Shown: piece after piece, positions 27,659 to 60,648 of the stretch | How the letters are laid out: each line of letters begins with the position of its first letter | How positions within the stretch are numbered: position 1 is the stretch's first letter | Source: a virus | Strand: one strand, 5' to 3' | Virus record (IMG/VR): IMGVR_UViG_3300005581_000008 | Span: 1 to 64,000 of that record | DNA: 64,000 nucleotides | Program-made: the position numbers and the translations under genes | Notes under the pieces: generated by a model | What the model saw: the letters and a program-made list of their open reading frames with translations, nothing else | What the model was told of the DNA's origin: nothing | Database searches by the model: none

Positions 27659-29776
27659 TTATTGGTTCTTTAGTTTAGTCATGACATTCCAATAAGAACC
27701 TCTATAGTGCGTTCCACTAATAGTATAGTCATTTGAGTATCCAGTATTATAGCATCGACCTGTAGTTAAATCTACATAGAAACCGAACTTATTACTTGAG
27801 TGGCCAGTTGGGTAGTATTTCCAGTAAGAACGATATGTACTAATCTGAGCATGTGGATACAATAGATTATTCTTTAGTCGATAGTTTGCAGAAATATTAT
27901 CTGGATCTCTGTCTTGTCTCTCATTGTATGTATCTGTATTTCCAGAAGCCCAAGCACCACCATTGTTTGAATACCCGCAGAAATACCAATCACCATCACT
28001 TCTCTTAACTGACATATTAGTATACGAAGAAGCACCACAATTTGATGCCATATCAACCACATTGGTTAAAGCAGTTCCACTTCTAAATTGAGTAGCTTGT
28101 AAAGTTGAGTAGTTTGTAGTAGATGCTTGTGCCACGGATAGTTGATAGTAACCATTATACCCACAAGTATATGCAGTATTGGATGAATCTGATGATCCTC
28201 TTGTGACCATCATAGATCCGTATTGACCACCGTAGTGCCAAGCATTCCACACATCTGTTAACTTTGTTCCACTCGGAGAAGTATTTTGTGGGGCTGCTGT
28301 CGTCACGGCAGCTGTAACACCATTATACCCTCCAGTATAAACTTCTAGAGGTAGACACACATTATAAGTGTGGTTATGTGCAAGTTGTCCATAACCATTA
28401 TAACCCCAAGTCCAAAGAGTATTATCTCTTCTAATAACTAACAGTGATACAGTAGAACCAGATGAATTTCCACCACTAGTATTAAATTTCTTAATACCAG
28501 TTGTAGAAGTTGTACCCCATGTTTTAACAAATGTTGGTGAAGAACGATTTGTAGTATCACCAACACCTAATTGTCCGTTACCATTGTATCCTATTGCATA
28601 CATCTTTCCTTGATCAGTCAAGAACCAGAAAGATCCATAGTTACCACCAGTTGCCCAGATCTCAATAATTTTACCATTGGTTGTTTGGTCAAAAGAAACT
28701 AAAGTTGGTTGGTAGTAATCTGTTGCATTACCTTGTCCCAATTGTCCATAACCATTATAACCCCACGCATATAATTCACGAGTATCATCTGAGTTACGAA
28801 TTAAAGCGTAGCAAGATCTTGTAGAAATATTACCGTCAGAAGAAGAAGCAATACGAATGGCTTTCTTAGTGCGAAGAATTGTTGTTGGACTAGTTTTATT
28901 AATACCAGCGTATCCACACTGTGTAAAATTGGTATACTGTGTAGTTTGGCCATGTCCACAAGCACCTTGAACATTATATCCTGCAGAGTGTACTTCGCCA
29001 TTGTCAAATAGTACTAGAGTACCATCAAATCCGCCATCGCTTTCAATTTGAATAAGTTTTGGTGCTGCTGTGGTTGGAGAAGTTGGAAGAGAACCATCAA
29101 ACCAACTCAAATGAGAGAACGATGCTTCTCCTGGAGTTTGTTGTGTTCCTGACGCTACACCAGTACCTAAATTGTAGCTAGAGTTTCTACCATAAGACAT
29201 TAAACCGTATCTTCTATTAACATACTGTACTGCACCATTACCTGCTAGATTAGATCCAGGAGTTTTAAACTCACCGAAACTATCGCCCATACCAACATAA
29301 CTAGTTCCAGGTACTGCAAGCGCATAAGCATCCCAAACAGTTTTATGTGTTGGTGAATAACCTTCGTTTGGACCGAACAAATAAGCAAATTTATCTCTCA
29401 TAGTCCCAGTGGAAATCTTTTTCCAATATGCAGTTTGAGTTGATGGATTCTGATTTGTACCTGTTTGAATACAGATATATGAATCTTGTTCTAGATAATT
29501 GTGGTGATCATTATAAGGTAGTGTTCTTTTATAAGTTATAATATCACCCACAGCATAAGCAGTAGCATTTGACCACTCACCAGCTTGATACACACCACCA
29601 CCCATTAAATCCCAATTCGCAGTGTTTAATTCTGGAGTGGTTGAAGATGAATTGGCTACTTCACAAGCATAGTATTTGTTTTTGTAAAGAACGATGTCAT
29701 CTACCAAGTATGATGTGGCTGCAACCCAAGAACCTCTTGGATTAAATCTTAGTTTACTCAATGTTGATATTGTCAT
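27659..29776 (-). CDS. RCC1-repeat adhesin, copy 3 (705 aa)
   Basis: 705 residues. N-terminal modules RGSWVAATSYLVDDIVLYKNKYYACE and YQAGEWSNATAYAVGDIITYK precede about seven RCC1 units: NGEVHSAGYNVQGACGHG, RELYAWGYNGYGQLGQGN, QGKMYAIGYNGNGQLGVGD, NTLWTWGYNGYGQLAHNH, and diverged units ending in TGRCYNTGYSNDY. It is upstream in transcription of the other two adhesins. The strongly conserved GYNGYGQLG unit also gives near-identical DNA stretches between the paralogues, which could promote recombination. Confidence 0.86.
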   Translation of the reverse strand: MTISTLSKLRFNPRGSWVAATSYLVDDIVLYKNKYYACEVANSSSTTPELNTANWDLMGGGVYQAGEWSNATAYAVGDIITYKRTLPYNDHHNYLEQDSYICIQTGTNQNPSTQTAYWKKISTGTMRDKFAYLFGPNEGYSPTHKTVWDAYALAVPGTSYVGMGDSFGEFKTPGSNLAGNGAVQYVNRRYGLMSYGRNSSYNLGTGVASGTQQTPGEASFSHLSWFDGSLPTSPTTAAPKLIQIESDGGFDGTLVLFDNGEVHSAGYNVQGACGHGQTTQYTNFTQCGYAGINKTSPTTILRTKKAIRIASSSDGNISTRSCYALIRNSDDTRELYAWGYNGYGQLGQGNATDYYQPTLVSFDQTTNGKIIEIWATGGNYGSFWFLTDQGKMYAIGYNGNGQLGVGDTTNRSSPTFVKTWGTTSTTGIKKFNTSGGNSSGSTVSLLVIRRDNTLWTWGYNGYGQLAHNHTYNVCLPLEVYTGGYNGVTAAVTTAAPQNTSPSGTKLTDVWNAWHYGGQYGSMMVTRGSSDSSNTAYTCGYNGYYQLSVAQASTTNYSTLQATQFRSGTALTNVVDMASNCGASSYTNMSVKRSDGDWYFCGYSNNGGAWASGNTDTYNERQDRDPDNISANYRLKNNLLYPHAQISTYRSYWKYYPTGHSSNKFGFYVDLTTGRCYNTGYSNDYTISGTHYRGSYWNVMTKLKNQ

Positions 29777-31726: not shown

Positions 31727-32432
31727 TGTAATCTCCAGTATAAGAATTCACTGCATCTTTAACTAAATCATAAACTAAGTCATCTCTAAGGTCTGCAAAG
31801 AAACGAATTGTTAGCCTCACACCTTCTTCATCAAAATTAAATACATTGTGATAGTGGAATGCATTAAACACAACTGGAGTTGACGGTATATAACTAGCTT
31901 CGTATACCTTTGGAAGTTCCTTGCCAAAATCAACCATTCTGTATTGTTTGTTTGATATTACAGAGTATTTAAACTTATCTGGCATCGTAATTGGTAACTG
32001 AATAATCATCATCGTCTCTGGATGATATAATTCAAAAGCATGATTATGCCAACCCATTACAGTTCCAGGATGAATCTCCTCAATCCTTGCCAACGCTTTA
32101 CCACCACCCAACTGTTCAACAATTTCGTAGGTATACGGCAGATATTCAGACAAACCAGTTTTCTGAAACTGCCCCCAAATTCTTTCTAACTCTCCTGGAC
32201 CAGCACCCTCTAATCTATCGCAAAATATTTCACCATTATAACTGAACAATGATAAATTGTTCCACTTACTTTTACTGTGTCCATGATTCTCTTGCATAGT
32301 AGCTGAGTATGGCATTAGCGGAAATGGACACTCACGAATCTCGTGCTCAATCCTTTCTGCATCGTATTTAAAATTTAACGGCAGATGAGGAATTCTATTT
32401 ACTTGTTCAACTAATTGCGCTATGTTTCTCAT
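31719..32432 (-). CDS. Aspartyl/asparaginyl beta-hydroxylase-like 2OG oxygenase, copy 1
   Basis: 237 residues, paralogous to the 221-residue neighbour. Shared landmarks are LARIEEIHPGTVMGWHNHAFE (His129, His131), the IIQLPITMPDKFKYSV strand region, and VVFNAFHYHNVFNF (His193/195) with Arg210 in RLTIRF. It should be a soluble cytoplasmic 2OG/Fe(II) hydroxylase. It overlaps the radical SAM gene upstream by 26 bases, so the pair is translated together. Two copies suggest two substrates or a heterodimer. Function in this phage is inferred. Confidence 0.82.
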   Translation of the reverse strand: MRNIAQLVEQVNRIPHLPLNFKYDAERIEHEIRECPFPLMPYSATMQENHGHSKSKWNNLSLFSYNGEIFCDRLEGAGPGELERIWGQFQKTGLSEYLPYTYEIVEQLGGGKALARIEEIHPGTVMGWHNHAFELYHPETMMIIQLPITMPDKFKYSVISNKQYRMVDFGKELPKVYEASYIPSTPVVFNAFHYHNVFNFDEEGVRLTIRFFADLRDDLVYDLVKDAVNSYTGDYIE

Positions 32433-34311
32433 TAATAAAATTTTCGTAAAAGGTTCTTATCTGATAAAATTTATCATACTTTGGAGCAGTGGAAAACTTT
32501 AAAGAATTAACTCTTTCAGCCCATTGTTCATATATTGACTCTGGTACATCTAAATTTAATTGCTCTGCTAATTCTACTAAGAATTTTAAATAATCTTCCT
32601 GAAACACTACAGCACAAGATTGAAAAATATAACTTAAATTTGCAGACACATTTGTGTGTGGTAAATTATATTCTCTAAAATCTACAATCTCTTTTCTATT
32701 ACCTGAAACTAATTCTTGCATCTGATCGCTAAGGTTTCTCATAGCCAAAAGATATTTATTATCAGTATCGGACATAACCTTTTGGTATAGATGTCTAAAC
32801 AGAATAGATGGTCTACTAATTTTACCAGATGCAATATTGGCATCGATAACAATTTTGGTGAAATCAAATAATGGTCTATTGTAGACGATCCAATAATTCA
32901 CAAAGAAAAACTCAGTATACTCTTCTTCAGTGTATCCGTTGGCTTTAGTCACAAACTCCACATCTGAGATATAGACAGGATCATCGGATATATGATATTT
33001 AGAGAACTCATCTACATCGTTAAATTCATAGCTATTTAATCTAGACTTACCAACACAAACCCTTGCAGTTTTAATACCATGTTCTTTTTTATACTCTGGA
33101 TCAAAGGCAGGAGAGTCTGGTAGCAGTAACCAAATATATCGTTCAAGTTGATATCCATGTTCGTACTGAAGATCTATCTCATCGTAAAAATCTTCCTTCG
33201 TGTATCCTGGAAGTCCAAGAATGAATTCAATATCTGAACGAACATCATATGTCTTTTCCAAGTATCTGGCAAACTCAAAATCTTTTTCTCTTGGTACATC
33301 AGTTCTTTTAATGTTTCGTAAAACTTTTTGACTAATAGACTGTAAACTAATTTTGTAACGATTAACTGCGCCACATCTTGCCAATGGTTCAATAACAGCC
33401 CATCTTGCTTCTTGTTTAGATTTCGTTATACCAAATAGTTCAACTTGAGTTGGCAACCCATATATGTTCTTAGACTGCTCGATATAATTTGAAACATCAA
33501 CATCTTCTTTGAATATTCCATAGTTTGCGTCAACAATTTGAACACCCTCAATACCAAACTGTGGGATATAATCTAGATCTTGTTTAATCATATCCAGTGG
33601 TTTACGAATAACCTTTCCACCGATACCACCACCCCACTCGCAAAACACGCAAGCATAGGGGCATCCTCTAGATAATTCTATTGGAAGAACAAGTGGAACA
33701 TTGGCTTCCATTGCCAAATCTTTGCACTTGTAAATAATATCTTCATTTCCTGGGATCATTGCCTGAGGAAATTGAAATGTAACTTTATTTGGAGTTGGTC
33801 CACGACCAGTTCTAAAGATAGAAAACCTTACCTGTTTCCAATCAATATCACCTTCAGCATATTGATTTAACATATCCTCAATAAACCACTCACCATAACT
33901 AGTAGGTTCACAGATAGCATCTACAAATTTATGACTAAAGAACCAGTCTAGTTTATTGTGAGTTATACCTAAGTGTGGTCCACCAATTACAATAATTCGT
34001 TTCGGGTTTCTATTTTTAATCTCTTTCGCAATTGCCATAATTGCCATATGGCTCCATACATAACTAGAAAACAAATAGATGTCAGAATCTTGTTTATCGT
34101 AATAGTTTACGATATCATCGAAACTCATTCCTTCAACATCTAAAACTGGTTCTTGCCAAATTACATTTGACGAATACTTACCATTTTTAGTATAGTAGTT
34201 CTTGAAGTTTAACCAATGGATCGGTAACCTAATAACAGGTGATCTTAGTTCAACTGTTAAGTATGAGATTTTTATGGATTTTCTGGGTGGCTTCAACATA
34301 ATCTGTTTCAC
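32407..34311 (-). CDS. Radical SAM enzyme with B12-binding-like N-terminal region (634 aa)
   Basis: 634 residues. The radical SAM cluster motif is C217-PYA-C221-VF-C224 (SRGCPYACVFCEWGGG), followed by the usual barrel (EGVQIVDANYGIF, SDIEFILGLPGYTKEDF). Residues about 60-145 look like the Rossmann region of B12-type radical SAM enzymes (YLFSSYVWSH, IIVIGGPHLGITH), but the cobalamin-ligating DxHxxG motif is not visible. It could be a methyltransferase or an oxidoreductase that needs no base-off B12. A GTG start at 34311 or the ATG at 34299 is possible; both overlap the preceding gene by 50-62 bases. Likely part of the cassette's modification chemistry. Confidence 0.85.
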   Translation of the reverse strand: MKQIMLKPPRKSIKISYLTVELRSPVIRLPIHWLNFKNYYTKNGKYSSNVIWQEPVLDVEGMSFDDIVNYYDKQDSDIYLFSSYVWSHMAIMAIAKEIKNRNPKRIIVIGGPHLGITHNKLDWFFSHKFVDAICEPTSYGEWFIEDMLNQYAEGDIDWKQVRFSIFRTGRGPTPNKVTFQFPQAMIPGNEDIIYKCKDLAMEANVPLVLPIELSRGCPYACVFCEWGGGIGGKVIRKPLDMIKQDLDYIPQFGIEGVQIVDANYGIFKEDVDVSNYIEQSKNIYGLPTQVELFGITKSKQEARWAVIEPLARCGAVNRYKISLQSISQKVLRNIKRTDVPREKDFEFARYLEKTYDVRSDIEFILGLPGYTKEDFYDEIDLQYEHGYQLERYIWLLLPDSPAFDPEYKKEHGIKTARVCVGKSRLNSYEFNDVDEFSKYHISDDPVYISDVEFVTKANGYTEEEYTEFFFVNYWIVYNRPLFDFTKIVIDANIASGKISRPSILFRHLYQKVMSDTDNKYLLAMRNLSDQMQELVSGNRKEIVDFREYNLPHTNVSANLSYIFQSCAVVFQEDYLKFLVELAEQLNLDVPESIYEQWAERVNSLKFSTAPKYDKFYQIRTFYENFINEKHSAIS

Positions 34312-35302
34312 TGTTTATTTTAATAATTCTTGGAGCCAACTGTTTCATATGAACACAGTGCTCTTCAACCATATCATGGTGTTTTAAATCTTTAATTGTT
34401 TTCTTGCACCCATTACAAATTGCAAACATTGGGCAACCGATACACTCATCCTTTAACGAATATAGTTCTGGAGCATCTTGTAGTGGTGTAATAAATCCAC
34501 CTTCTTTAACTTCCTTTACAAAGTTAATAGGGTATTCTTTATCATCACCCATCGCTCCACAAGAATAATAATCTCCCTCTGGATTCAATGCTCTTATATG
34601 ATCATCACAATTTCTTGCTTGAGGACAAACATTGGCAATATTATTCAGACGAGTCATCATCTGTTTTGTATTAAACTCCCAATGCCAAAGATCTTTCTCG
34701 TATATCTCTATGTACGCTTCGTATATCTTACTTAGGCGATAAGGTTTATCCTGTTCACCAGAAGCCATGGCATAGTTTAACTTACATTGAACATCCATCT
34801 TCTTGGCTAACTCTACATGTTTAATTGCATGTTTCTCATTCTCTTCAGAGATAACAGCAATAAATCCTGGGCGATAACCAATCTCTTTTAGAAACAAATT
34901 ACTGACATTCCAAAAGTCTTTTTCAGTATAGACTCGGTTCTCGTTAATCTTACGACCAAATCCATATTGAAAACTTGTGGTGACTCCGACTCTTGGATGT
35001 TTGAACAAAGGTGTCCACATCTCTGGTTTCTTGTAGAATGCCCAAAGATTAGTAGTCAATCCTAAAGTTGTTATAAGTTTGTGTTCTTCGATATAATCAA
35101 GAATCTCAAAATAATACTCTGGCTTTACCATTAATGGATCACCACCATTAACAATAATCGTATTTGTGTTTGGAAATCTTTTTAAAAAATCGAATACATG
35201 CTGTAAATCAAGTGTGCTGGTTTTGTCTTCTACAAGTTTAGTGGATGAACAAAAGGTACACTTAAAATTACATAGTTCCGTTGGTTTGATTATCAGTTCC
35301 AT
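34250..35302 (-). CDS. Radical SAM/SPASM maturase-like enzyme, copy 2 (350 aa)
   Basis: 350 residues. The cluster motif is C11-NFK-C15-TF-C18, followed by VNGGDPLM (GGDP at 53-56), a SAM-binding segment. The C-terminal Cys-rich part (C226, C232, C248, C287, C290, C296, C299, C316; e.g. ECIGCPMFAICNGCKKTIK) is a SPASM domain that holds auxiliary iron-sulfur clusters in peptide-modifying enzymes. It overlaps the neighbouring genes by 35 and 62 bases. The natural reading is a maturase that modifies a ribosomally made peptide or protein, with the product unknown. Confidence 0.88.
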   Translation of the reverse strand: MELIIKPTELCNFKCTFCSSTKLVEDKTSTLDLQHVFDFLKRFPNTNTIIVNGGDPLMVKPEYYFEILDYIEEHKLITTLGLTTNLWAFYKKPEMWTPLFKHPRVGVTTSFQYGFGRKINENRVYTEKDFWNVSNLFLKEIGYRPGFIAVISEENEKHAIKHVELAKKMDVQCKLNYAMASGEQDKPYRLSKIYEAYIEIYEKDLWHWEFNTKQMMTRLNNIANVCPQARNCDDHIRALNPEGDYYSCGAMGDDKEYPINFVKEVKEGGFITPLQDAPELYSLKDECIGCPMFAICNGCKKTIKDLKHHDMVEEHCVHMKQLAPRIIKINSETDYVEATQKIHKNLILNS

Positions 35303-37153: not shown

Positions 37154-37898
37154 CGGCTTCTTTGATCATTGAATTTAATTGTTGTGGGGTAAATTTAGCG
37201 TCTAAAATAATTTTTAAAATTGGGAAAAACAAACATGTTTTAGAAGACAGATAATAGGTTAATGTTTTACCAGAATATATTGGTCTATCAAAATAGAAAT
37301 CAAAATATTTTAAATCGTCAAACTTTGGTAATGAACCATAGTAATGGAAATTAAATGCTTCATTTAGTAAGATATTTACAAAAGTTTTTCCAACTTCTTG
37401 TTTCTCAGTTACAATATTATTTGTAATAAAATCGCCATGCACCTCATGATACGAATTCAAATTCTTTATCGCTAATAGTATAATTCCATCTAGCAAATCA
37501 GCCAACTGTTTTATTAAATCTTTATTCTGTTCTACAAATAATGCAATGTCACCATTGGATAAAATACTTTTTTGAAGAAAAGGTTTATCATCTTCTGATT
37601 TATCAACTAAAGATAGATCGTATCCTTTATACAAAAATAAAGATTTAAGAACTGCTGCTTCTAATTGTTCAATATGGCATGTTGAATTGTGTTTAATAAA
37701 TTCGCAAATCAAATCACTTTTTTCATCGTAAGCAATATCTGTGAAATCAATATTCAAATTTTCATATTTTAGATTACTAAGATATGTAATAAAGTTCTTA
37801 CCTTTAATTTTTGAATTGGCATAGTCAATGGCTGGAGATTTTATATCTCCAGTTATAATATGTTTTAAAACTTCAGAGTCAAATGGTATAGTGTACAT
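37137..37898 (-). CDS. Unknown cassette protein (253 aa)
   Basis: Unrecognised. I place the start at the ATG at 37898, where stop and start share one base (TAATG) with the precursor-like gene; an upstream non-ATG start would add 10 residues. The protein is soluble and helical, with many Lys, Leu, Asn and Asp, and ends in TPQQLNSMIKEADATLI. Central segments (DLIKQLADLLDGIILLAIKNLNSYHEVHGDFI) are amphipathic helix. No Cys cluster and no catalytic motif. Its immediate coupling to the precursor-like gene suggests that it binds, exports or protects that product, but this is inference. Confidence 0.72.
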   Translation of the reverse strand: MYTIPFDSEVLKHIITGDIKSPAIDYANSKIKGKNFITYLSNLKYENLNIDFTDIAYDEKSDLICEFIKHNSTCHIEQLEAAVLKSLFLYKGYDLSLVDKSEDDKPFLQKSILSNGDIALFVEQNKDLIKQLADLLDGIILLAIKNLNSYHEVHGDFITNNIVTEKQEVGKTFVNILLNEAFNFHYYGSLPKFDDLKYFDFYFDRPIYSGKTLTYYLSSKTCLFFPILKIILDAKFTPQQLNSMIKEADATLI

Positions 37899-38419
37899 TA
37901 AATACTTCCGTGGCAAGATCCATGGCAATTACTATGACAGTAAAATTCTTCTATGGTAACTGTGGTAGTTCTATTAGTATCTATTGCAGTTGATAGCAAA
38001 GCAACGAAAGCATCTAAATCAGAAACAGTAATAGTGTCTCCACCCTCTACTCCAATAAGAGGATCTGGCGCAATTTGATAAGTTTCACTAAGGCTAGTTA
38101 TATTAGTCTCGTTAAATTGTAAAGAAGATCTTGGATTCCCACCATTTTGATACCACTTCAATAAATTAACAGATCGTATTCTTGATAATAACTGCGCATA
38201 GTTTTTAAAATTTGTGGTTATTGTAGAAGCAACCACATTAGTATCTGAGATCTCGGAAGCAAAACTAGCAGGTATTGTTAAATCAGCTGCTGTGGCTGGT
38301 GCCTGAGAAAAAGGATTGGTCGTAGCTGACCATACAATACCAGTATTGTATAATGTCTTTAATGCTTCCATCGATTCAACGATGTTTGCTTTTGTTATAT
38401 TATCGCCAGCTGTTGTCAT
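37898..38419 (-). CDS. Putative modified-peptide precursor ending in (Cys-His-x-x)3
   Basis: 173 residues. Residues 1-160 contain no Cys and look like a soluble leader or carrier (NIVESMEALKTLYNTGIVW, EGGDTITVSDLDAFVALLSTAID). The last 13 residues are C161-H-S-N-C165-H-G-S-C169-H-G-S-I: three tandem four-residue units. The start ATG is preceded by AAAGG seven bases away. The gene overlaps a radical SAM/SPASM gene by 20 bases and is coupled to the next by TAATG. Clustering of modifying enzymes next to a short Cys/His core is how modified-peptide systems are built. An alternative is a virion protein with a metal-binding tail. No homologue is known to me by name. Confidence 0.8.
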   Translation of the reverse strand: MTTAGDNITKANIVESMEALKTLYNTGIVWSATTNPFSQAPATAADLTIPASFASEISDTNVVASTITTNFKNYAQLLSRIRSVNLLKWYQNGGNPRSSLQFNETNITSLSETYQIAPDPLIGVEGGDTITVSDLDAFVALLSTAIDTNRTTTVTIEEFYCHSNCHGSCHGSI

Positions 38420-39479
38420 TCTTTAACCTTTGCATTAGTGTTTTCGGTGCTGCACAGATATCTCCTTGCCATTTCAATTGATGGCAGTCGCTATTGCAGA
38501 TATCAAATACATCACAGGTATAGCAACGAGGGTCTCTTTCTATCTCGCATGTAATGTTATTTATTCTTCCTCTGGCGGAGAGTAAAGTTCTAATAGGTTG
38601 AGATATATCTCCAAACCCATTACCCACTGCAGCATTCGGACATCCAGCCACAGTTCCATCGGCATTAATCGTAAAGATTTTCTGTTCACAATCTCTACAT
38701 CTAACTCCACCATGTATTCCCTTAGTTATAGAGGAATACACACCTTCCAGTAGGACATCTTTATATTTAGGTTTTATTGTCTGATAGGTTTCATGCATTC
38801 TAACAAACCAATCGTCTTGGTCTTTATTTGCAGGAAAGATATGTGTATTTTCTAGAGCCGATCCATCGTGGGTTAGTCGTTCAAACTGCACCCAATTAAC
38901 ACCTAGCGTATTCAGCCAGAGAACTAACTCAGTGGTATCCATCTCCATTAGTTGTTTATTAAGGCTAATATTCAGTGTAATATTATGCCCAGCATCTACT
39001 ACAGTTTGAAGATTCTTTCGCCAGAGGTTTTCTTGTTTATCATTCTCAAATCGAATACCTTTATCCCACGAAGTGCAGAATCCATTTTTAAGAACAGTTT
39101 TGAAAAACTGCATATGATCTTCAGTTAGATTAAAACATAGATTTGTAGAGCAAGACCAGTTAAGATTCGGGAATAATTTTGATACTTTATCCCAGACATA
39201 ATACATATCATCCAGCGGAGCAAGGAATGGTTCTCCTCCATGAAATGTAATATTCCCACCATTGAAAGATGGGCATTCCTCGTGGAGTCGTTCAAACCAC
39301 TCTACAGTATGTTCGGGATTAAAGTATATCTTTTTGCCGTTGGCACCATTTGTAAAACAGTGTTGGCAATTAAGTTGACAAGTTTCTGTGGTCTTGAGAT
39401 AGACCACTAAATCTTTTGGGATTAATATATCTGAAAGAGATACATCTGTCTTATGAAAGACAATTGGTTGAGTTATCAT
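38400..39479 (-). CDS. Radical SAM/SPASM maturase-like enzyme, copy 1 (359 aa)
   Basis: 359 residues. The cluster motif is C34-QLN-C38-QH-C41, with GGEP at 81-84 (ITFHGGEPFLAPLDD). The C-terminal SPASM region holds C261, C264, C280 (RCRDCEQKIFTINADGTVAGC), C311, C319, C322, C328, C332 and C342 (RCYTCDVFDICNSDCHQLKW). This arrangement is typical of sulfatase-maturase and RiPP-maturase relatives, which make formylglycine, thioether or C-C bonds on Cys, Ser or other residues of peptides. It overlaps the Cys-His-tailed protein by 20 bases, so it is the first candidate for modifying that tail. It starts 6 bases after the 405-residue fibre gene. Confidence 0.9.
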   Translation of the reverse strand: MITQPIVFHKTDVSLSDILIPKDLVVYLKTTETCQLNCQHCFTNGANGKKIYFNPEHTVEWFERLHEECPSFNGGNITFHGGEPFLAPLDDMYYVWDKVSKLFPNLNWSCSTNLCFNLTEDHMQFFKTVLKNGFCTSWDKGIRFENDKQENLWRKNLQTVVDAGHNITLNISLNKQLMEMDTTELVLWLNTLGVNWVQFERLTHDGSALENTHIFPANKDQDDWFVRMHETYQTIKPKYKDVLLEGVYSSITKGIHGGVRCRDCEQKIFTINADGTVAGCPNAAVGNGFGDISQPIRTLLSARGRINNITCEIERDPRCYTCDVFDICNSDCHQLKWQGDICAAPKTLMQRLKNDNSWR

Positions 39480-47528: not shown

Positions 47529-50500
47529 TTAGAATCTTATAACAGTTCTAAGCGTCACAGTCTCATCATCAGATGGAGTAAATCCAGCTTTATTGTCAAT
47601 AAACATTAACTGTCCAGAATATTTATCCACTGTTGGTGATGTTACATTAGTAGCAGTAAAGGTTTGTGATGCAGCATTAGTGAAAGTATCGTTCAATTGT
47701 GGGACATCATTATCTAAAGATTGAATTAATACTGAGTTTGAAGTAGATGAAACTACTCTATATTTTCTATAATATGTAGTTCCACTAACACTTCTTGCTA
47801 CAGTACAATTTGTATCTTTGGGGAAATATGTTGTGTTAATAGATCCCTGTAATAAGAAACATCCTGATCCAATAACATTCTGATAACGAGTATTATCTAA
47901 GAATGATCTTGGGTTTTTAATAATACCCAGTTGTCGATAATCGTTGTTAACGGTAACACCTTGATTTAAATCGTTTGATACATTAGAATAAAACATTAAT
48001 GTTCTAGCAAATAATTCATCAGGAGCATTTTTACCGTGTCCACCGTAAGGAGAAATAATTGCTCTAGCAGTTCCAGCTTTTCCATTACCTGCTATTACAA
48101 TATCTGCCCATGTATAATTTTGTCCAGGATTTGTTATATTTATTTTAGTTATTCTACCTGTGGCAGTATTAATAGAAGCTGTGGCTGTTGCGCCAGTGCC
48201 ATCTCCATTAATTGTAATAGTAGCCACACCATAACCATATCCACCAGAAATTAACTTAACTGCATTAATAGTCCCAGCAGTTGTTAAAATCTCATTATTA
48301 GCCTGCAAAGATTTAATATCTCCAAGATTTAAATCTGCTTGCATAGTGGCATTAGTTCCTGTACCAGAAACCGCAAGAGTTGCTGCAGTATATCCAGTAC
48401 CAGCATTTTCAACAGTAACTCCAACTACCTGCCCACCATCAATAATAGGTAATAATTTAGCATTTGATTTGTCAACATTAACAACACCTACTACACCAGA
48501 ACCTTGATCAACACTAGTGAATGTTATTGATGGGTTAGTAGAATAACCAGCACCGAACCTACGAATTGCAGACCCAGATGCAGCAATTCCAGCATAAGTT
48601 AAAATAACATCACCACTGGTAGCTGTACCACTAGTATGTGATGGAGCGACAGTACCTAATTTAGATACTAGTAAATTCTGATATTGATATACAGTATCGT
48701 TTGCGCTACCAACAATATACATATATGCATTGGTTGGATGCAGTGCAAGACCAGAACCAGTGCTCTCAAGCCCACCAATATAAAACTGATTTGTATATAG
48801 TGCAGTAGCAACTGAATTGGCAGTACCTAAAGTATACTGGTAAATATAGTCAGTAGTTGCATCAGTAACTAACATGTTTTTACCATCAGCAGTAACAGCA
48901 ATATCTACTGGGTTAGTAGTTTGACTCGCAACGCTAAAAGATGTACTATATGTGGCAGTAGTAATAGTCCAAGCTGTACCTAGCGTATATTGAAAAATAG
49001 CATCGGCAGTTGCGCCAACTAACCACATTTTTGTTCCATCAGCACTAAATGCTAAACCACCAGTAGTAGTATCTTCAGCAGCAATAGAAAATGTGGCAGA
49101 TGTAGTTAGCGCAGAAGTTGAGATAGTCCAAGCAGTGGCCAGTGTATATTCTTGAACCAAGTCAGCAGACTGTCCAACAACAAACATCTTTAATCCATCG
49201 CTGGAGAATGCAATACCTACTGGAACAGTTTCTGTGGCTAGTGCTCCAGATTCATATGAGAATACTGCAGTAGATACATCCCATGCTGAAGAAAGATTAT
49301 AAACAATCACATTATTATCAGTATCTCCAAGAACAAACATCTTTGTTCCATCAGTTGAGAATGCTAAACACGATGGAGCAGTATCTCTTGCAGTAACAGA
49401 AACTGATTTACCTGTATAAGTTGCTTGTGTAATATTTAATTGAGTACCAGCAGTTGTAACAGTATATAATCTATTACTAGCAAAAATTTGGTCAGAAAGT
49501 TGAACCTGTCCTTCTGAAGACCATGCAGTTCCAAAAGTTACAGTTGGGTCGCTAGAATAGTTATCTCCAATATTTGTAACAGTAGCATATAAAACACTAC
49601 CAGAAACAGTATTCATTTTAACAACTGCAGTTGCTCCAGAACCACCACCACCAGAAAAATTAACTGTAGGTGGTGTAGTATATCCAGTTCCTGCAGAAGT
49701 TAAATTAATTTCTCTAACTGCTCCAACTGGTGTTACGCCAGAAACAAATCCACTGGTAACAGTAACAGTAGATGTTCCAGTTGCGGCAGACATAGTTTTA
49801 GCAGTGCCACCAATACTAGCAGTAATAGTTAAAGTTGTAGAATTAGGTACAGTTAAAATGTAGTAAGTAGTTCCAGAAACAATAGTGCCAATAGTTGTAC
49901 CAAATACAATGCGCTGACCAGCATAAAAACCTGCAGTAGAACTAACAGTTATAAGATTTGTAGTCAGTGCAGTAGAAACTGTTCCAGAAGCTAAAGATAT
50001 AGTGCTAGTTCCAAGAGTAGCAGTTCCTTTTGCTCGTGTACCAACATACTTTAAAGAAGCAGTTCCATTTTTAACAATTCCAAATCGGTGTGTTGGTTCT
50101 AGTGCTGATAAAGTTCCTGGAGAATATATCTCAAAGAAATCGCCAACAGAGTTATATAATTTTTGCCCAATGATAACTCCACTATTAGCAATGAATAGAG
50201 TTGCACTGTTAATAGGATCACCGAAAGTTACAGTTGGTGCAGTGAAATAATTAATACCAGCCGAGGTAATAGTTACTGGAGTTACAGTGTTTAAGAATAC
50301 TGGATCTTCTTCTCGGTAACCATCACCAGTTACTGAAATTGATGCTCCAGTGTATCCAGTACCTTTATTGGTAATTGCGATACTATCTAAACTACCATTT
50401 GAGTAAAATTGGTTTGTTAATGCTGAAGAAACTGGAATTTGTTCTGCGCTTAAGAATTTGTTTCTCAAATTGATAGGCACATTATACATATACTTCCAGA

Positions 50501-51230
50501 TGTATCCATCTGAAGTAGTAATAGGAGTTACAGATGTTCCAGAAGGTTTTACTATAGAAAAAGAATTATTATTATTGTCTAGACATTTGTATACATTATA
50601 ATCATCTGTCATAACATAAAAGATAGTATCTTCAATATTATTTTCACCAGAGTAAGACAGGTTTAATATTGCTTGTAAGTTTGCTCCAGAACCACCAGAA
50701 CCACCAGTGACTGTTACAGTAGGAACAGAAGTATATCCAATTCCTCTTGAAACTAAATCAACACCAATAATCTGACCATCTAAAACAACTGGAGTATATT
50801 CTGCACCAGTTCCACCACCACCAGTTATTGTAATAGTTGGAAGAGTATTATAACTAGAACCCCCAGAAATAATATCGATACCAATAATTTGATTGCAATA
50901 CTCGTCATCGTACATATCATATACAACACCTGATATCCAATCATATCTTGGGATAACAAAACATACATCTGATGGACCAATTTGCTTCATAGTGATAATT
51001 TCACTACGAACTGCTCTTTCATAAGCATAGCTATCGATAGGATAAGGTGGAGCAGTTTCATCATCCCAAGCTAATGTTTTACCCAAGAAATAATAGTAAT
51101 TAGAACTTCTTGTTACCACATCTCTGTATACACCTTCTGCAAGAGATTTGTGCAGAATAGTTTTTATTAGAGATGAAGATGATGTTGTACCACTACTTGG
51201 TGGAACTATCGAAGATGAAGAAGCTACCAT
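47529..51230 (-). CDS. 8: Baseplate wedge protein gp8, greatly enlarged
   Basis: 1233 residues against 334 in T4 gp8. Conserved gp8 landmarks survive: TAPPYPIDS (59-67), FVIPRYDW (91-98), TSDGYIWKYMYNVP (239-252) and, near the end, YRQLGIIKNPRSFL and MFIDNKAGFTPSDDETVTL. Between them are GSGY-type repeats (about 116-188, 283-340, 505-570 and again after 900) and, at about 605-852, five propeller-like repeats with the unit LAFSTDGTKMFVLGDTDNNVIVYNL. These insertions explain the extra length. gp8 is a wedge subunit at the edge of the baseplate, so the additions would be exposed. It precedes the 2188-residue gene. Confidence 0.88.
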   Translation of the reverse strand: MVASSSSIVPPSSGTTSSSSLIKTILHKSLAEGVYRDVVTRSSNYYYFLGKTLAWDDETAPPYPIDSYAYERAVRSEIITMKQIGPSDVCFVIPRYDWISGVVYDMYDDEYCNQIIGIDIISGGSSYNTLPTITITGGGGTGAEYTPVVLDGQIIGVDLVSRGIGYTSVPTVTVTGGSGGSGANLQAILNLSYSGENNIEDTIFYVMTDDYNVYKCLDNNNNSFSIVKPSGTSVTPITTSDGYIWKYMYNVPINLRNKFLSAEQIPVSSALTNQFYSNGSLDSIAITNKGTGYTGASISVTGDGYREEDPVFLNTVTPVTITSAGINYFTAPTVTFGDPINSATLFIANSGVIIGQKLYNSVGDFFEIYSPGTLSALEPTHRFGIVKNGTASLKYVGTRAKGTATLGTSTISLASGTVSTALTTNLITVSSTAGFYAGQRIVFGTTIGTIVSGTTYYILTVPNSTTLTITASIGGTAKTMSAATGTSTVTVTSGFVSGVTPVGAVREINLTSAGTGYTTPPTVNFSGGGGSGATAVVKMNTVSGSVLYATVTNIGDNYSSDPTVTFGTAWSSEGQVQLSDQIFASNRLYTVTTAGTQLNITQATYTGKSVSVTARDTAPSCLAFSTDGTKMFVLGDTDNNVIVYNLSSAWDVSTAVFSYESGALATETVPVGIAFSSDGLKMFVVGQSADLVQEYTLATAWTISTSALTTSATFSIAAEDTTTGGLAFSADGTKMWLVGATADAIFQYTLGTAWTITTATYSTSFSVASQTTNPVDIAVTADGKNMLVTDATTDYIYQYTLGTANSVATALYTNQFYIGGLESTGSGLALHPTNAYMYIVGSANDTVYQYQNLLVSKLGTVAPSHTSGTATSGDVILTYAGIAASGSAIRRFGAGYSTNPSITFTSVDQGSGVVGVVNVDKSNAKLLPIIDGGQVVGVTVENAGTGYTAATLAVSGTGTNATMQADLNLGDIKSLQANNEILTTAGTINAVKLISGGYGYGVATITINGDGTGATATASINTATGRITKINITNPGQNYTWADIVIAGNGKAGTARAIISPYGGHGKNAPDELFARTLMFYSNVSNDLNQGVTVNNDYRQLGIIKNPRSFLDNTRYQNVIGSGCFLLQGSINTTYFPKDTNCTVARSVSGTTYYRKYRVVSSTSNSVLIQSLDNDVPQLNDTFTNAASQTFTATNVTSPTVDKYSGQLMFIDNKAGFTPSDDETVTLRTVIRF
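48675..49418 (-). repeat. Five-repeat propeller-like insert in gp8
   Basis: At gp8 residues about 605-852 five units repeat: (L/I)AFSxDGxKMFVxGxxxDxVxxYxLxxAWxxSTA, with starts near 620, 671, 725, 774 and 828. The spacing of about 50 residues and the SxDGxKMF motif resemble WD/lactonase-type beta-propeller blades. Fewer than seven units are clear, so the number of blades is uncertain. Confidence 0.8.
50667..50885 (-). repeat. GSGY-type repeat module in gp8 (first copy pair)
   Basis: gp8 residues about 116-188 give two units, SGGSSYNTLPTITITGGGGTGA and SRGIGYTSVPTVTVTGGSGGSGA. They match the inserts in gp18 and gp14. Confidence 0.85.
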
Positions 51231-51258: not shown

Positions 51259-51726
51259 TTAACCTACAGTAACAACCCATGTTACAGCGATAGTATCACC
51301 AGCTGATTTACCAACAGATGGGAATGTAGTACGGCAAAGCATTGTACCTGCGCCAGCAGTACCTGAGTTAAATACAGCTGCTTCCTGAATACCAGGAGAT
51401 GTAGAAGTACCAGTACCAGCTGGGAATGTAGCAGTAAAAGTAACTGTATTAGTTGATGTAGAAGATGAGCATGATACACGACCAACTTCTGCGATTAACT
51501 GTGCCTGAGCAGCGTCTGGTGTAGTTGCACTAGTACCAATAGCCATGTGAGTCATAGAAACTGGTGAGTTGGTAGTAGCAATTATCTTAGATGCGATAAA
51601 AGTCTTACCTGAGGTAACTACCAAGTTTGGCACTTCAAACTCACGAATTGTTTCACCTGCTGCATTACGATGAAGGATTTTAACCATTCCAGTTGCAGCG
51701 ATATTGTCTTTATTAAATTGTTCCAT
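51259..51726 (-). CDS. Small beta-rich virion protein (155 aa)
   Basis: 155 residues. Residues 14-50 (GMVKILHRNAAGETIREFEVPNLVVTSGKTFIA) and 60-155 follow a pattern common in phage tail-region proteins: MTHMAIGTSATTPDAAQAQLIAEVGRV, then VTFTATFPAGTGTSTSPGIQEAAVFN and TMLCRTTFPSVGKSAGDTIAVTWVV. I cannot name the family with certainty; such proteins accompany baseplate or fibre genes. It sits between gp7-like and gp8. A baseplate-associated accessory role is likely; exact function unknown. Confidence 0.78.
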   Translation of the reverse strand: MEQFNKDNIAATGMVKILHRNAAGETIREFEVPNLVVTSGKTFIASKIIATTNSPVSMTHMAIGTSATTPDAAQAQLIAEVGRVSCSSSTSTNTVTFTATFPAGTGTSTSPGIQEAAVFNSGTAGAGTMLCRTTFPSVGKSAGDTIAVTWVVTVG

Positions 51727-57036: not shown

Positions 57037-57550
57037 ATGACACCAATTCTTTTAAATTTAACATTCCTGGAGTCCAGTTTAGGTCTTGGGCTAGTATAGT
57101 ATAAGTTTGAGAAGCTACTACGGTATTTGGAACTAAAGGGTCATATGCTTCTGCAAGATAAGTGAATGTTCGACTTCTTGTAGTATCAGCTTTAAATGAA
57201 ATAACCTGATATACATTGGATCTACTAACAGCGTCAAATACTCCAGCGTTTTCTCCAAGAGTCGTTATGGTAGTAAAAGATCCGTCCTCTGCTCTAGTAG
57301 TAAGACTATCATTAAAAATACCTTTATAATATCCACTAACAGTTCCAGGATTTCCAGCAGCAAATGTTATACTGTTTGGATTAGTTTCTTGAGGAATTAT
57401 ACGAACATTATAGTATGTAGGTGCGCCAGCCTCAACTGGTGGAATTGCAAGAGGATCTCCTGCAGCACCCTCAACATAATATTGTACTGTATGGCTAAAG
57501 GAAGCCAGTTCAGCATGAGTACCTAGTAGTGTTTCAGTTGGAACCCACAT
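57020..57550 (-). CDS. Unknown protein between gp5 and PAAR (176 aa)
   Basis: I do not recognise a family. 176 residues, beta-rich, with one Trp-Val-Pro start (MWVPTETLLGTHAELASFSHTVQYYV) and strands such as YYNVRIIPQETNPNSITFAAG and VYQVISFKADTTRSRTFTYLAEAYD. No Cys. It starts one base inside the gp5 stop and overlaps the PAAR gene by 17 bases, so it is translated with the central hub proteins. A role in the tail tip (needle shaft or hub adaptor) follows from the location only. Confidence 0.72.
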   Translation of the reverse strand: MWVPTETLLGTHAELASFSHTVQYYVEGAAGDPLAIPPVEAGAPTYYNVRIIPQETNPNSITFAAGNPGTVSGYYKGIFNDSLTTRAEDGSFTTITTLGENAGVFDAVSRSNVYQVISFKADTTRSRTFTYLAEAYDPLVPNTVVASQTYTILAQDLNWTPGMLNLKELVSYASSK

Positions 57551-60500
57551 TATGCAGGTTTCTTATGTGGAGGACAAGTTGCCAATAAAACAAAGCCTTT
57601 GCCTCTAAATGCTTGGGCATCATGATTTACCATTGTGAACGCTTGTTTTTTTCTACCTTTCATTTTGTAAGAACAGTGAATCCAGTTTTCAAACGGATGA
57701 TTATACTCAAGTATAAGCTGGTCATATGGAACAACCTTTTCTAGCTTGACACAATACTCATATGTTTTATCAAATTTAGGAGCAAGCATAATTCCAATGT
57801 CAACAGCGCATCCCTTTGGATGATCCGATGACTTAGATTCATTTTTAACAACACCTCTTAAACGATATCCAGAATTAATCTTCCATTGTTTTTTATACCC
57901 ACCAATACCACCTGGAAGAACATCAAGCGCAGGTTCCAATACATTCTGAGCAAGCATAGCCATATTACAAATAATTTCTTGAACTTTGTATAATCTTTCT
58001 GGTCCGTCCTTAGTTTCTCTTAACATTTGATCAACTAATTTATGGTTGCCAGTTGTACCACCATCGATTAGCATACCAAGAGTAAAGTTTTTCGATAGAC
58101 GGAAGTCATCAGTAAAGTTTGTAGTACCGTAAATAATTTTGCAGTCTACAGGAACTTCTTTAGCGTTTGCAGATGGTTTAGTTATTGGAGTGGCATCTAC
58201 TCCAAGCGGTGGAGGAGCATTAACAACACCTTCAGTTCTAGCGGTTTGATGTGTTGCTGCTCTACCTTCTGGTGTTTCTGCAATATCAGGTGTTTCAACT
58301 ACTGCTTTATCTTCAAATTGTCTTTGTGGTGGAACAGTATAAGGAACAACTGCATTAAACGGAGAACCTTTTGCTGGTGGAGTTAATGCAACATTTTCTA
58401 CAGCTGTAGCTGCAGCTGCTCCATTACCAAATTGCCCCTCAGAATAATCCATACTGGTTTTTCCGCCAGAAAGATAATTCGCAGCACCTTCGGATTGTAC
58501 ATTAACTGTAGATCCTTTAAGACTTAACGCAGAAACTGCTTGCATATTAAATGCTGCTTGAGATTTAACATTGACACTACCAGCATCAATACTTAAAGCA
58601 CCCACAACTTTAACCTTCATATCATTACCAACTGCTAATGTTAAATCACCAGCAATACCAATATCAGCATTAGTACCAACTCTCACTGTTGCATTATTTT
58701 CAACATGAATATTCGCATCTGTTCTTGCATAAATGTTTGTATTACCTTCTACAGTAATATTTAATTCACCATCTACGCTGACGCAACCATTTCTTTCCAT
58801 GATGATAAAATTATCACCAACAATATAATTAACTTGCGTTCCAGTAGGATCAATTTCAGTGAATGTACCAGAGCGGTGATAAGTATGAATTCTTTCATAT
58901 CCTGGGGTATCATCAAACTCTTGAATATGCCCAGACTCAGTCTCAAGAACTTTATTGTATGGATACTGTGCGCCATATGTTGATAATGGTTGATCCCAAG
59001 ATCCTAGGTCAAGTGCTTTCGGAACAGTTAATTTACGAATCACATCTTTTTTATTAACAACAGTACCATCAATAATACCACGAGCTAATCTATTTGTATC
59101 TGGTTCACCAATATAAGCTAATAGTGGATATTTGTTATTTGGGTCTCTAAATCCAGTATTAATAGAACCAGATTTTATACTCTCATCCGATGGTCTTGGT
59201 GTTGGATCTTTAGTGTCTTTTGGAGGTTGTGGCACTGGTGCACCAGCACTTTTTTCAGTTCCACCTTCTGCAACTGCTCCATAAAAATATTCATAGTATG
59301 TTTTTTTAAGTTCAGCAATATCAGGAGAGTTAACACCCACACCTTTTTTTGCTGCATAAAAATAATCAGGATGTTTTGAAGGAGGAACACCCTTGGATGT
59401 TCGATCTTTAATATAAAGAGCAGCAATTACTGCACCGACATTGATGTCATCGCCAAGAGAATCTGGATTGTTAACAAGATCAATTTTAATTCCATATGCT
59501 AATGCTTGCTGTTGGTACTTGGTATAGTTCGCACGACCAGTTAATTGAATAAAACCTCTACCGTAATATTTTCCACCATCAGCATCATTTAGGTTTCCTA
59601 ACTGGTTTGACATACCTCTTTTTGTAGTGCCATAAGCCCATGAGAAGAATTGTTCTCGTGTGATACCTTTTTTGGTAGCGTTTGAATATTTTGCAACATC
59701 ATCTGGTGTGGCAAAAGAAAAGATTTCCTTTAACCTTTTTTCATCATAATTAAAAAATTCTTTTCGTTGAATCCATCTAGACTCACCGCCAGCAATAGCA
59801 AGGATAGAACACTTTTGTTCTTTAGTTGTCAATCCAACTTTGTCACATGCAGCGATAATGGCTTTAATACCTGCCGTAGAAAGTGCTACATTATCTGAAG
59901 ATTTTTTAGGTGGTACTGTTGGAATTACATCATTGGTTGATGAAGATTTAACAGGTGATGCTATGGCTGATCCAGTAGTGACTGGTGTTCCATCTCCAGA
60001 TCTAACTATTGTGCCGTCACCAGTTCTTAGTGCAGTATCATATACTTTACTTTCAGCAACTGCAGATAAATTAGTTGGTGCTGCTTCGAACGATATAATA
60101 TTTTCTTCAAGTTTAATAACTGGTTTACTAATAGTTATTTTTGTTCCACTATCGATTGACACAATAGTAGAGTCAGAAGGAATACCAAAACCTATCACCT
60201 TCATGTTAGGTTTTAGTTGTGTTGTTAAATTATTTGATCCATTTTCTGGATCAAAGAAAGTTAATTGTTTACCATTAGTTGGTCCAGGAACAGTTCTTAA
60301 TTTTAGATCTGTAAGTTTAACGGAAGCAGTAATAGATCCATTATCATCTGCGTCAACAGGTAAGGGTGAACTTGGAATACCACCAAGTGTTCCTAAAAGA
60401 ATGGGTTGTTGTTTATCATCATCAGCAAATATAATAATAACCGATGTGCCTTCAACTGGACCAACAGGAGATTGTCCAATTCCATTCATCGCTGCAGAAG

Positions 60501-60648
60501 TAACTGGCTGAACGGGAACTGCCCATGGAAGATCTGCTGTAGGTAGCTGAGATTTATCGTGAGTGTGCAATCCTACAACTCTGACTTGACATCGCCCAAG
60601 TCTTAGTGGATCACTTCTATTTTCTACGACACCATAGTAAAAATTCAT
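57550..60648 (-). CDS. 5: Baseplate hub gp5 with GH19 and M15 hydrolase domains
   Basis: 1032 residues (T4: 575). Residues about 1-95 are the gp5 OB-fold (NFYYGVVENRSDPLRLGRCQVRVVG, TSVIIIFADDDKQQPILLGTLGG). Residues about 260-455 are a glycoside hydrolase family 19 domain (IAGGESRWIQRKEFFNYDEKRL with Glu289, and YYGRGFIQLTGRANYTKYQQ) instead of the T4 lysozyme domain. Residues about 570-745 form the needle beta-helix (repeated VxGxxxIxVxxN). Residues about 835-1010 are an M15 D-Ala-D-Ala carboxypeptidase-like domain: SGYRLRG, SSDHPKGCAVDIG (His943, Asp950) and WIHCS (His991). The combination would cut glycan and peptide parts of the cell wall. Confidence 0.92.
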   Translation of the reverse strand: MNFYYGVVENRSDPLRLGRCQVRVVGLHTHDKSQLPTADLPWAVPVQPVTSAAMNGIGQSPVGPVEGTSVIIIFADDDKQQPILLGTLGGIPSSPLPVDADDNGSITASVKLTDLKLRTVPGPTNGKQLTFFDPENGSNNLTTQLKPNMKVIGFGIPSDSTIVSIDSGTKITISKPVIKLEENIISFEAAPTNLSAVAESKVYDTALRTGDGTIVRSGDGTPVTTGSAIASPVKSSSTNDVIPTVPPKKSSDNVALSTAGIKAIIAACDKVGLTTKEQKCSILAIAGGESRWIQRKEFFNYDEKRLKEIFSFATPDDVAKYSNATKKGITREQFFSWAYGTTKRGMSNQLGNLNDADGGKYYGRGFIQLTGRANYTKYQQQALAYGIKIDLVNNPDSLGDDINVGAVIAALYIKDRTSKGVPPSKHPDYFYAAKKGVGVNSPDIAELKKTYYEYFYGAVAEGGTEKSAGAPVPQPPKDTKDPTPRPSDESIKSGSINTGFRDPNNKYPLLAYIGEPDTNRLARGIIDGTVVNKKDVIRKLTVPKALDLGSWDQPLSTYGAQYPYNKVLETESGHIQEFDDTPGYERIHTYHRSGTFTEIDPTGTQVNYIVGDNFIIMERNGCVSVDGELNITVEGNTNIYARTDANIHVENNATVRVGTNADIGIAGDLTLAVGNDMKVKVVGALSIDAGSVNVKSQAAFNMQAVSALSLKGSTVNVQSEGAANYLSGGKTSMDYSEGQFGNGAAAATAVENVALTPPAKGSPFNAVVPYTVPPQRQFEDKAVVETPDIAETPEGRAATHQTARTEGVVNAPPPLGVDATPITKPSANAKEVPVDCKIIYGTTNFTDDFRLSKNFTLGMLIDGGTTGNHKLVDQMLRETKDGPERLYKVQEIICNMAMLAQNVLEPALDVLPGGIGGYKKQWKINSGYRLRGVVKNESKSSDHPKGCAVDIGIMLAPKFDKTYEYCVKLEKVVPYDQLILEYNHPFENWIHCSYKMKGRKKQAFTMVNHDAQAFRGKGFVLLATCPPHKKPA

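What the first reader, a model, noticed from the sequence alone, without database searches (positions are those of the whole stretch)
47529..51230. gp8 enlarged almost fourfold by a propeller and beta repeats
All conserved gp8 segments are present but widely separated. A five-repeat propeller-like domain and several GSGY units are inserted. Wedge proteins normally are compact, so this baseplate would carry extra large domains, perhaps for glycan binding.
Basis: partly seen in the sequence, partly recalled or inferred. Interest (0 to 1): 0.7.

Follow-up and report, generated by a model that had tools for sequence, protein, structure and literature searches.

The report
Phage baseplate wedge protein with propeller
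A structural protein in the landing gear of an uncultured T4-like virus has acquired a removable five-bladed propeller domain, related to domains in other viruses' tail fibres, that probably helps the virus grip its host's surface.

Summary
Window 47529-51230 encodes a 1233-aa gp8 (baseplate wedge) of a T4-like phage: PF09215 and phrog_438 match, and the conserved N-terminal, middle and C-terminal gp8 segments are kept but spread apart by inserts (T4 gp8 is 334 aa). The inserts are about ten 38-aa GSGY units, two small beta modules and a five-bladed beta-propeller (residues ~604-857). AlphaFold2 models the propeller well (pLDDT 88.7; 20 strands). The gp8 core itself was modelled poorly, so its fold is untested.

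Large gp8s are normal here: 104 complete relatives span 532-1243 aa, median 959. The propeller is the unusual part. It occurs in only four lineages, always at one site, and relatives without it close up cleanly. Its tree nests inside tail-fibre propellers. Between two near-identical phages the divergence jumps exactly over the propeller. Homologous repeats come in blocks of five (153 of 156), and the most variable residues lie on one face.

Best reading: an accessory adhesion module in a wedge protein, comparable to 'evolved Dit' proteins. Ligand and glycan binding were not tested. Novelty: new variant of a known kind.

The parts
47529..51230 (-). gp8-family baseplate wedge protein gene, 1233 aa
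50901..51182 (-). conserved gp8 N-terminal segment (residues 17-110; PPYPxDS ... VIPRxxW ... YDMYDD)
   Evidence: PF09215 match residues 58-108; alignment with T4 gp8
50646..50897 (-). insert 1: two GSGY units (residues 112-195), absent from T4, cyanophage and 532-aa relatives
50391..50645 (-). conserved gp8 middle segment (residues 196-280; NVYKCLDNN ... DGYIWKYMYNVP)
50196..50390 (-). GSGY units 3-4 (residues 281-345)
50031..50195 (-). 'EPTH' beta module (residues 346-400), same pattern as the module that hosts the propeller
   Evidence: sequence comparison
49722..50030 (-). length-variable spacer region (residues 401-503; 20-237 aa in relatives), low model confidence
49521..49721 (-). GSGY units 5-6 (residues 504-570)
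49422..49520 (-). first half of the LYTV...PSHTSG module (residues 571-603), which the propeller interrupts
48660..49421 (-). inserted five-bladed beta-propeller (residues 604-857)
49251..49400 (-). propeller repeat 1 (residues 611-660)
49092..49250 (-). propeller repeat 2 (residues 661-713)
48939..49091 (-). propeller repeat 3 (residues 714-764)
48786..48938 (-). propeller repeat 4 (residues 765-815)
48660..48785 (-). propeller repeat 5 (residues 816-857); its fourth strand is supplied by residues ~604-611 (velcro closure)
48579..48659 (-). second half of the LYTV...PSHTSG module (residues 858-884)
48045..48578 (-). GSGY units 7-10 (residues 885-1062); the last three are shared with 532-aa relatives and partly with cyanophage gp8
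47532..48044 (-). conserved gp8 C-terminal segment (residues 1063-1233; NDYRQLGIIKNP ... SGQLMFIDNK ... TVIRF)

Best explanation
This is gp8 of an uncultured T4-like myovirus. A five-bladed beta-propeller of the kind otherwise found in phage tail fibres has been inserted into a loop of an outer beta module. Shown here: gp8 membership by sequence, the exact insertion site, the five-blade count, the modular presence and absence, the single origin of gp8 propellers from within tail-fibre propellers, and the local divergence jump over the propeller. Inferred: the gp8 core still builds the wedge (in T4, two gp8 per wedge, twelve per baseplate), so up to twelve propellers would project from the upper baseplate rim, where the variable face contacts a host surface polymer. 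It would act as an accessory adhesin that raises avidity or lets the phage through a surface layer, as inserted carbohydrate-binding domains do in 'evolved Dit' baseplate proteins. The GSGY units are most likely outward spacer or decoration modules.
For: gp8; the gene follows gp25-gp6-gp7-like genes, matching T4 gene order 6-7-8. Propeller: AF2 pLDDT 88.7, pTM 0.86, 20 strands, closed; matches Lentibacter phage and other viral models at TM 0.83-0.85. Five blades are general: block span about 244 aa in 153 of 156 viral blocks. Clean insertion: relatives read LYTVTGAGTT-SGTAPTHTSG across the junction. Patchy presence: three changes on well-supported branches of the gp8-core tree, L012 with and its sister L082 without; a fourth carrier, L295, uses the same site. 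gp8 propellers form one clade (SH-aLRT 99) nested among propellers of other phage proteins, many with collagen repeats or tail-fibre profiles. Against L007, 147/762 nt differ inside the propeller and 131/1899 in the flanks (p=2e-19); 46 of 78 aa changes fall in it. The three most variable blade positions lie in the BC and DA loop region, the same three in all five blades. Literature: five-bladed propeller in the phi11 receptor-binding protein (PMC4901313); evolved Dit inserts promote adsorption (PMC10688798); gp8 copy number and place in T4 (PMC3004832); gp8 mutated during phage-host coexistence in S-PM2d (PMC9910659).
Against: No ligand, glycan or binding site is shown. dN/dS inside the propeller against L007 is about 0.16, so there is no sign of positive selection and many changes are conservative; the excess divergence could be an old allele exchanged by recombination. 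The full-length AlphaFold2 model leaves the gp8 core below pLDDT 50, so exposure of the propeller on the baseplate is not demonstrated. In T4, gp8 sits slightly inward in the upper baseplate dome (PMC3004832), not at the host-facing rim. Carriers are few. Variable top loops are common in propellers of any function.
Confidence: 0.62

Rival explanations
1. The propeller is a structural or decorating domain with no specific ligand: it bulks up or stabilises the enlarged wedge, or contacts neighbouring enlarged baseplate proteins.
For: Other virion proteins of this phage are enlarged by GSGY units too (sheath 729 aa, neck protein), so enlargement may be a general virion trait. Purifying selection dominates inside the propeller.
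Against: The propeller is dispensable in close relatives at the same site and related to tail-fibre domains. The variable positions are confined mostly to one face.
Confidence: 0.22
2. The propeller is an enzyme domain, a lactonase or gluconolactonase-like hydrolase acting on surface polymers.
For: Weak Pfam matches to Lactonase (24.4 bits, cut-off 21.7) and SGL (25.0 bits, cut-off 26.3) for the isolated domain.
Against: Five blades instead of six or seven. Conservation is nearly the same in every blade, with entropy profiles correlated 0.78-0.98 between blades, and the invariant residues are the repeated structural G, Y, L, F, P set. No residue conserved in one blade only, as an asymmetric active site would need, was seen.
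Confidence: 0.05
3. The propeller carries an attachment function inside the particle: it docks a tail fibre or another adhesin onto the baseplate rather than touching the host.
For: gp8 lies close to the fibre-attachment protein gp9 and to gp10 in T4 (PMC3004832). The same domain occurs inside fibre proteins, so propeller-propeller contact is conceivable.
Against: No propeller-bearing fibre accompanies the propeller-bearing gp8 in the window's own record: the search there finds no second propeller copy, though that record may be incomplete.
Confidence: 0.1
4. Assembly or gene-fusion artefact: a tail-fibre fragment wrongly joined into gp8.
For: Propeller kin are tail-fibre-like proteins.
Against: The same junctions occur in several independent contigs (L005, L006, L007, L008) and in diverged lineages L010, L012 and L295 at the same site.
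Confidence: 0.01

Closest known systems
T4 gp8 baseplate wedge protein (PF09215; PDB 1N7Z) and cyanophage gp8 (phrog_438)
   Same: Shared N-terminal, middle and C-terminal segments and gene order
   Different: T4 334 aa and cyanophage about 510 aa against 1233 aa; no propeller and few or no GSGY units in those
Evolved Dit proteins of lactococcal 936 phages (PMC6669499, PMC10688798)
   Same: A core baseplate protein with an internal, patchily distributed, adhesin-like insert
   Different: Different virus type (siphovirus, Gram-positive host), different core protein, different insert fold (BppA-like carbohydrate-binding module); there binding was shown by experiment, here it is inferred
Phage phi11 receptor-binding protein Gp45 (PMC4901313)
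   Same: A five-bladed beta-propeller in a phage baseplate-associated host-recognition protein
   Different: A dedicated trimeric receptor-binding protein; no sequence similarity found in the PDB search and not among the 50 best fold matches
Tachylectin-2, five-bladed propeller lectin
   Same: Five sequence repeats of about 50 aa forming a closed propeller (from general knowledge)
   Different: No sequence match and not among the listed fold matches; lectin activity untested here
Lactonase (PF10282) / SGL / YVTN-type propellers
   Same: Weak profile similarity of the repeats; YVTN propeller 1l0q among the top fold matches
   Different: Five blades, TM only about 0.5, no asymmetric active-site conservation

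Membership tests
gp8 baseplate wedge family | Match to the family profile above the curated cut-off | tested here: met
   PF09215 29.5 bits against 25; 30 of 33 family members match; phrog_438 E=1.8e-83
gp8 baseplate wedge family | Conserved landmarks along the whole chain, in order | tested here: met
   Alignment with T4, S-SM1, BUCT-ZZ01 and Mosig; hhalign with T4 gp8 alone finds only the N-terminal 70 columns, probability 95%
gp8 baseplate wedge family | Gene neighbourhood gp25-gp6-gp7-gp8 | tested here: met
   gp25-, gp6- and gp7-like genes directly upstream, one 155-aa gene between gp7 and gp8
gp8 baseplate wedge family | Core folds as T4 gp8 | tested here: inconclusive
   Core pLDDT mostly below 50 in the full-length model
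gp8 baseplate wedge family | Dimer, binds gp7/gp10/gp6 and is needed for gp6 folding | not testable with these tools
   Known for T4 (PMC3004832)
Five-bladed beta-propeller | Exactly five repeats of about 50 aa | tested here: met
Five-bladed beta-propeller | Closed ring of five four-stranded sheets | tested here: met
   AF2 model pLDDT 88.7, 20 strands with the N-terminal strand completing the last blade; a prediction, not an experimental structure
Lactonase PF10282 (7-bladed) | Seven blades | tested here: not met
   Five blades, although the isolated domain scores just over the cut-off
Evolved baseplate protein with carbohydrate-binding insert (works-like comparison) | Internal insert present in some and absent in other close relatives at one site | tested here: met
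Evolved baseplate protein with carbohydrate-binding insert (works-like comparison) | Core protein is Dit | tested here: not met
   Core protein is gp8
Evolved baseplate protein with carbohydrate-binding insert (works-like comparison) | Insert binds host saccharide | not testable with these tools
   Needs binding assays

The most novel reading that the evidence does not exclude
An undescribed family of five-bladed beta-propellers, with a conserved scaffold and a five-fold ring of variable positions on one face, serves aquatic phages as an interchangeable recognition module. It is carried singly or in two or three copies by tail fibres, has been captured by the wedge protein gp8, and is also used by SAR11, Bacteroidota and other bacteria on large proteins. 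The baseplate wedge would then be a second, swappable host-binding layer in T4-like phages.
Probability: 0.4. Interest if true: 0.75.

Novelty: new variant of a known kind. Interest (0 to 1): 0.55.

Why it matters
In T4 the wedge protein gp8 is known for structural and chaperone roles. Here a tail-fibre-type domain appears in it as a removable, exchangeable module, which would make gp8 a second adhesion layer and extend the 'evolved baseplate protein' idea from siphoviruses of Gram-positive bacteria to T4-like phages. It also points to a widespread five-bladed propeller family in aquatic phages and SAR11, for which no solved representative was found here, whose variable face gives a concrete, testable binding hypothesis.

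Tried and rejected
Reading the feature on the plus strand: stops throughout, rejected. A partial seven-bladed propeller with two degenerate blades: rejected, because the block length is about 244 aa in nearly all homologues and the model closes with five blades; a second blade profile counted six in 38 blocks, but with the same span, so the sixth is most likely the split velcro strand. Assembly artefact: rejected. Sequence search of the PDB with the propeller and with GSGY units: no meaningful relative; the best GSGY hit (BurrH, E=0.002, an alpha-helical repeat protein) was judged a composition match. PDB fold search: only generic, mostly seven-bladed propellers at TM about 0.5. Full-length structure for the gp8 core: uninformative. 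Cyanophage-type host: no psbA in six related contigs, which is weak because all may be fragments; the host remains unknown. The nearest isolates by gp6 and portal are Pelagibacter and Methylophilales myophages. Papers joining 'baseplate wedge' and 'beta-propeller': none in the held library.

Full report
What is there. The finding lies on the minus strand: one 1233-aa ORF from 51230 down to 47529. The window is part of a 66,861-base virus record. Its structural genes are those of a T4-like myovirus: scaffold, portal, sheath, neck, then gp25, gp6, a gp7-like protein, a 155-aa protein, this gene, and a 2188-aa DUF4815 protein. The nearest isolates by gp6 are HTVC008M, Melnitz and Mosig, at 41-42% identity; by portal, Mosig and Melnitz at 54%.

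It is gp8. Pfam PF09215 scores above its cut-off, phrog_438 (baseplate wedge) matches in five stretches at E=1.8e-83, and 488 phage records match by tblastn, mostly cyanophages, many annotated as baseplate wedge/gp8. A multiple alignment with T4, S-SM1, BUCT-ZZ01 and Mosig shows the gp8 landmarks in order, with inserts between them. hhalign with T4 gp8 alone recovers only the N-terminal part, so the full-chain statement rests on the chain of intermediates.

How it grew. Lengths form a ladder: T4 334 aa, Mosig 486, S-SM1 510, BUCT-ZZ01 525, a viral-contig group at 532-534, and a large group around 860-1060 aa. Among 104 distinct complete relatives the range is 532-1243 and the median 959. Much of the excess is GSGY units: nine by profile in this protein plus a degenerate one, four in the 532-aa group, two in S-SM1, four in BUCT-ZZ01, sixteen in L314. 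GSGY units also sit in this phage's tail sheath and neck protein. AlphaFold2 models the units as short beta-meanders with pLDDT mostly 80-90. So the fourfold size relative to T4 is mostly a property of the phage group.

The propeller. Residues 604-857 are not GSGY material. Relatives without it read straight through the site (LYTVTGAGTT-SGTAPTHTSG), while this protein has LYTVTTAGT-[insert with the propeller]-LGTVAPSHTSG. AlphaFold2 gives a closed five-bladed propeller (pLDDT 88.7, pTM 0.86), the N-terminal strand completing the last blade. Homologous repeats in viral contigs come in blocks with a span of about 244 aa in 153 of 156 cases, two of the other three being two adjacent blocks. The same holds for most cellular homologues, found in SAR11, other Alphaproteobacteria, Bacteroidota and candidate-phyla genomes. 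Solved structures give only TM about 0.5 with propellers of more blades; viral models give TM 0.83-0.85, including a Lentibacter phage protein at 1.4 A rmsd.

Where it came from. Most other carriers are not gp8: the gp8 profile hits no independent locus among L085-L159. Many have tail-fibre features such as collagen repeats and tail-fibre profiles. In a tree of 79 propellers the gp8 ones form a clade (SH-aLRT 99) inside the phage propellers, next to fibre-type ones from L090, L108, L113, L119, L134 and L157 (quick method, many weak branches elsewhere). On the gp8-core tree, presence needs three changes on well-supported branches, and L012 is sister to L082 (without). One capture followed by losses, or exchange among gp8 genes, both fit.

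Signs of function. Compared with L007, the same gene in a close relative, nucleotide differences rise from 131 of 1899 in the flanks to 147 of 762 in the propeller (p=2e-19), with edges near residues 601 and 845, and 46 of 78 amino-acid changes fall inside. Because dS rises together with dN, this looks like exchange of a diverged allele rather than positive selection. Across 57 propellers, the three most variable blade positions (+9, -7, -9 from the DG motif, 3.2-3.5 bits) are the same in all five blades. They lie in the BC loop and the DA loop/start of strand A, which by general propeller geometry share one face, while the CD and AB loops on the other face are conserved (0.9 and 1.2 bits). 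This is what a recognition surface on a fixed scaffold would look like; it does not identify a ligand.

Mechanism proposed. In T4, gp8 is a dimer, twelve copies per baseplate, in the upper dome in contact with gp10, gp7 and gp6 (PMC3004832). An outward loop insert would give up to twelve propellers per baseplate. The nearest functional precedent is the evolved Dit of lactococcal phages, where an internal carbohydrate-binding insert promotes adsorption (PMC6669499, PMC10688798). A five-bladed propeller is the proposed receptor-binding platform of phi11 (PMC4901313). gp8 was among the genes mutated early in a cyanophage-host coexistence experiment (PMC9910659). Adhesion is therefore the preferred reading; exposure, ligand and effect on infection are inferred.

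Limits. The host is unknown. The loci were found with the window's own sequences, so their frequencies are not unbiased. A 1330-aa unannotated UniProt protein (A0A6J7WV12) matches the full-length model at 41% identity, so a relative was already deposited, undescribed as far as the held library shows.

Noticed in passing
window 37898-39479 (-): A 173-aa protein ending in EEFYCHSNCHGSCHGSI overlaps the start of a radical SAM gene with a Cys-rich C-terminus (38400-39479); two more radical SAM genes lie at 34250-35302 and 32407-34311 (the latter with a weak, below-cut-off B12-binding match). This looks like a peptide-modification cassette inside a phage structural region.
   Followed up: partly
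window 22267-24393, 25069-27639, 27659-29776 (-): Three RCC1-repeat proteins follow one another in the tail region, so the virion may carry further propellers of another kind.
   Followed up: no
window 6230-8419 (-) and 10815-11744 (-): Tail sheath (729 aa) and the neck protein carry GSGY units like those in gp8.
   Followed up: partly
L165-L243 (genome contigs): The same five-bladed propeller occurs in SAR11, other Alphaproteobacteria, Bacteroidota and candidate-phyla genomes, often several per very large protein.
   Followed up: partly
window 51259-51726 (-): A 155-aa protein of unknown function (phrog_5417) sits between the gp7-like gene and gp8; T4 has none there.
   Followed up: no
window 57550-60648 (-): The 1032-aa gp5-position protein seems by eye to hold a lysozyme/chitinase-like segment (GRGFIQLTGRANY) and a C-terminal peptidase-like segment; not checked with tools.
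   Followed up: no
L046:5995-8980: gp8 split into two closed ORFs of 295 and 636 aa, a real frameshift or a sequencing error.
   Followed up: no
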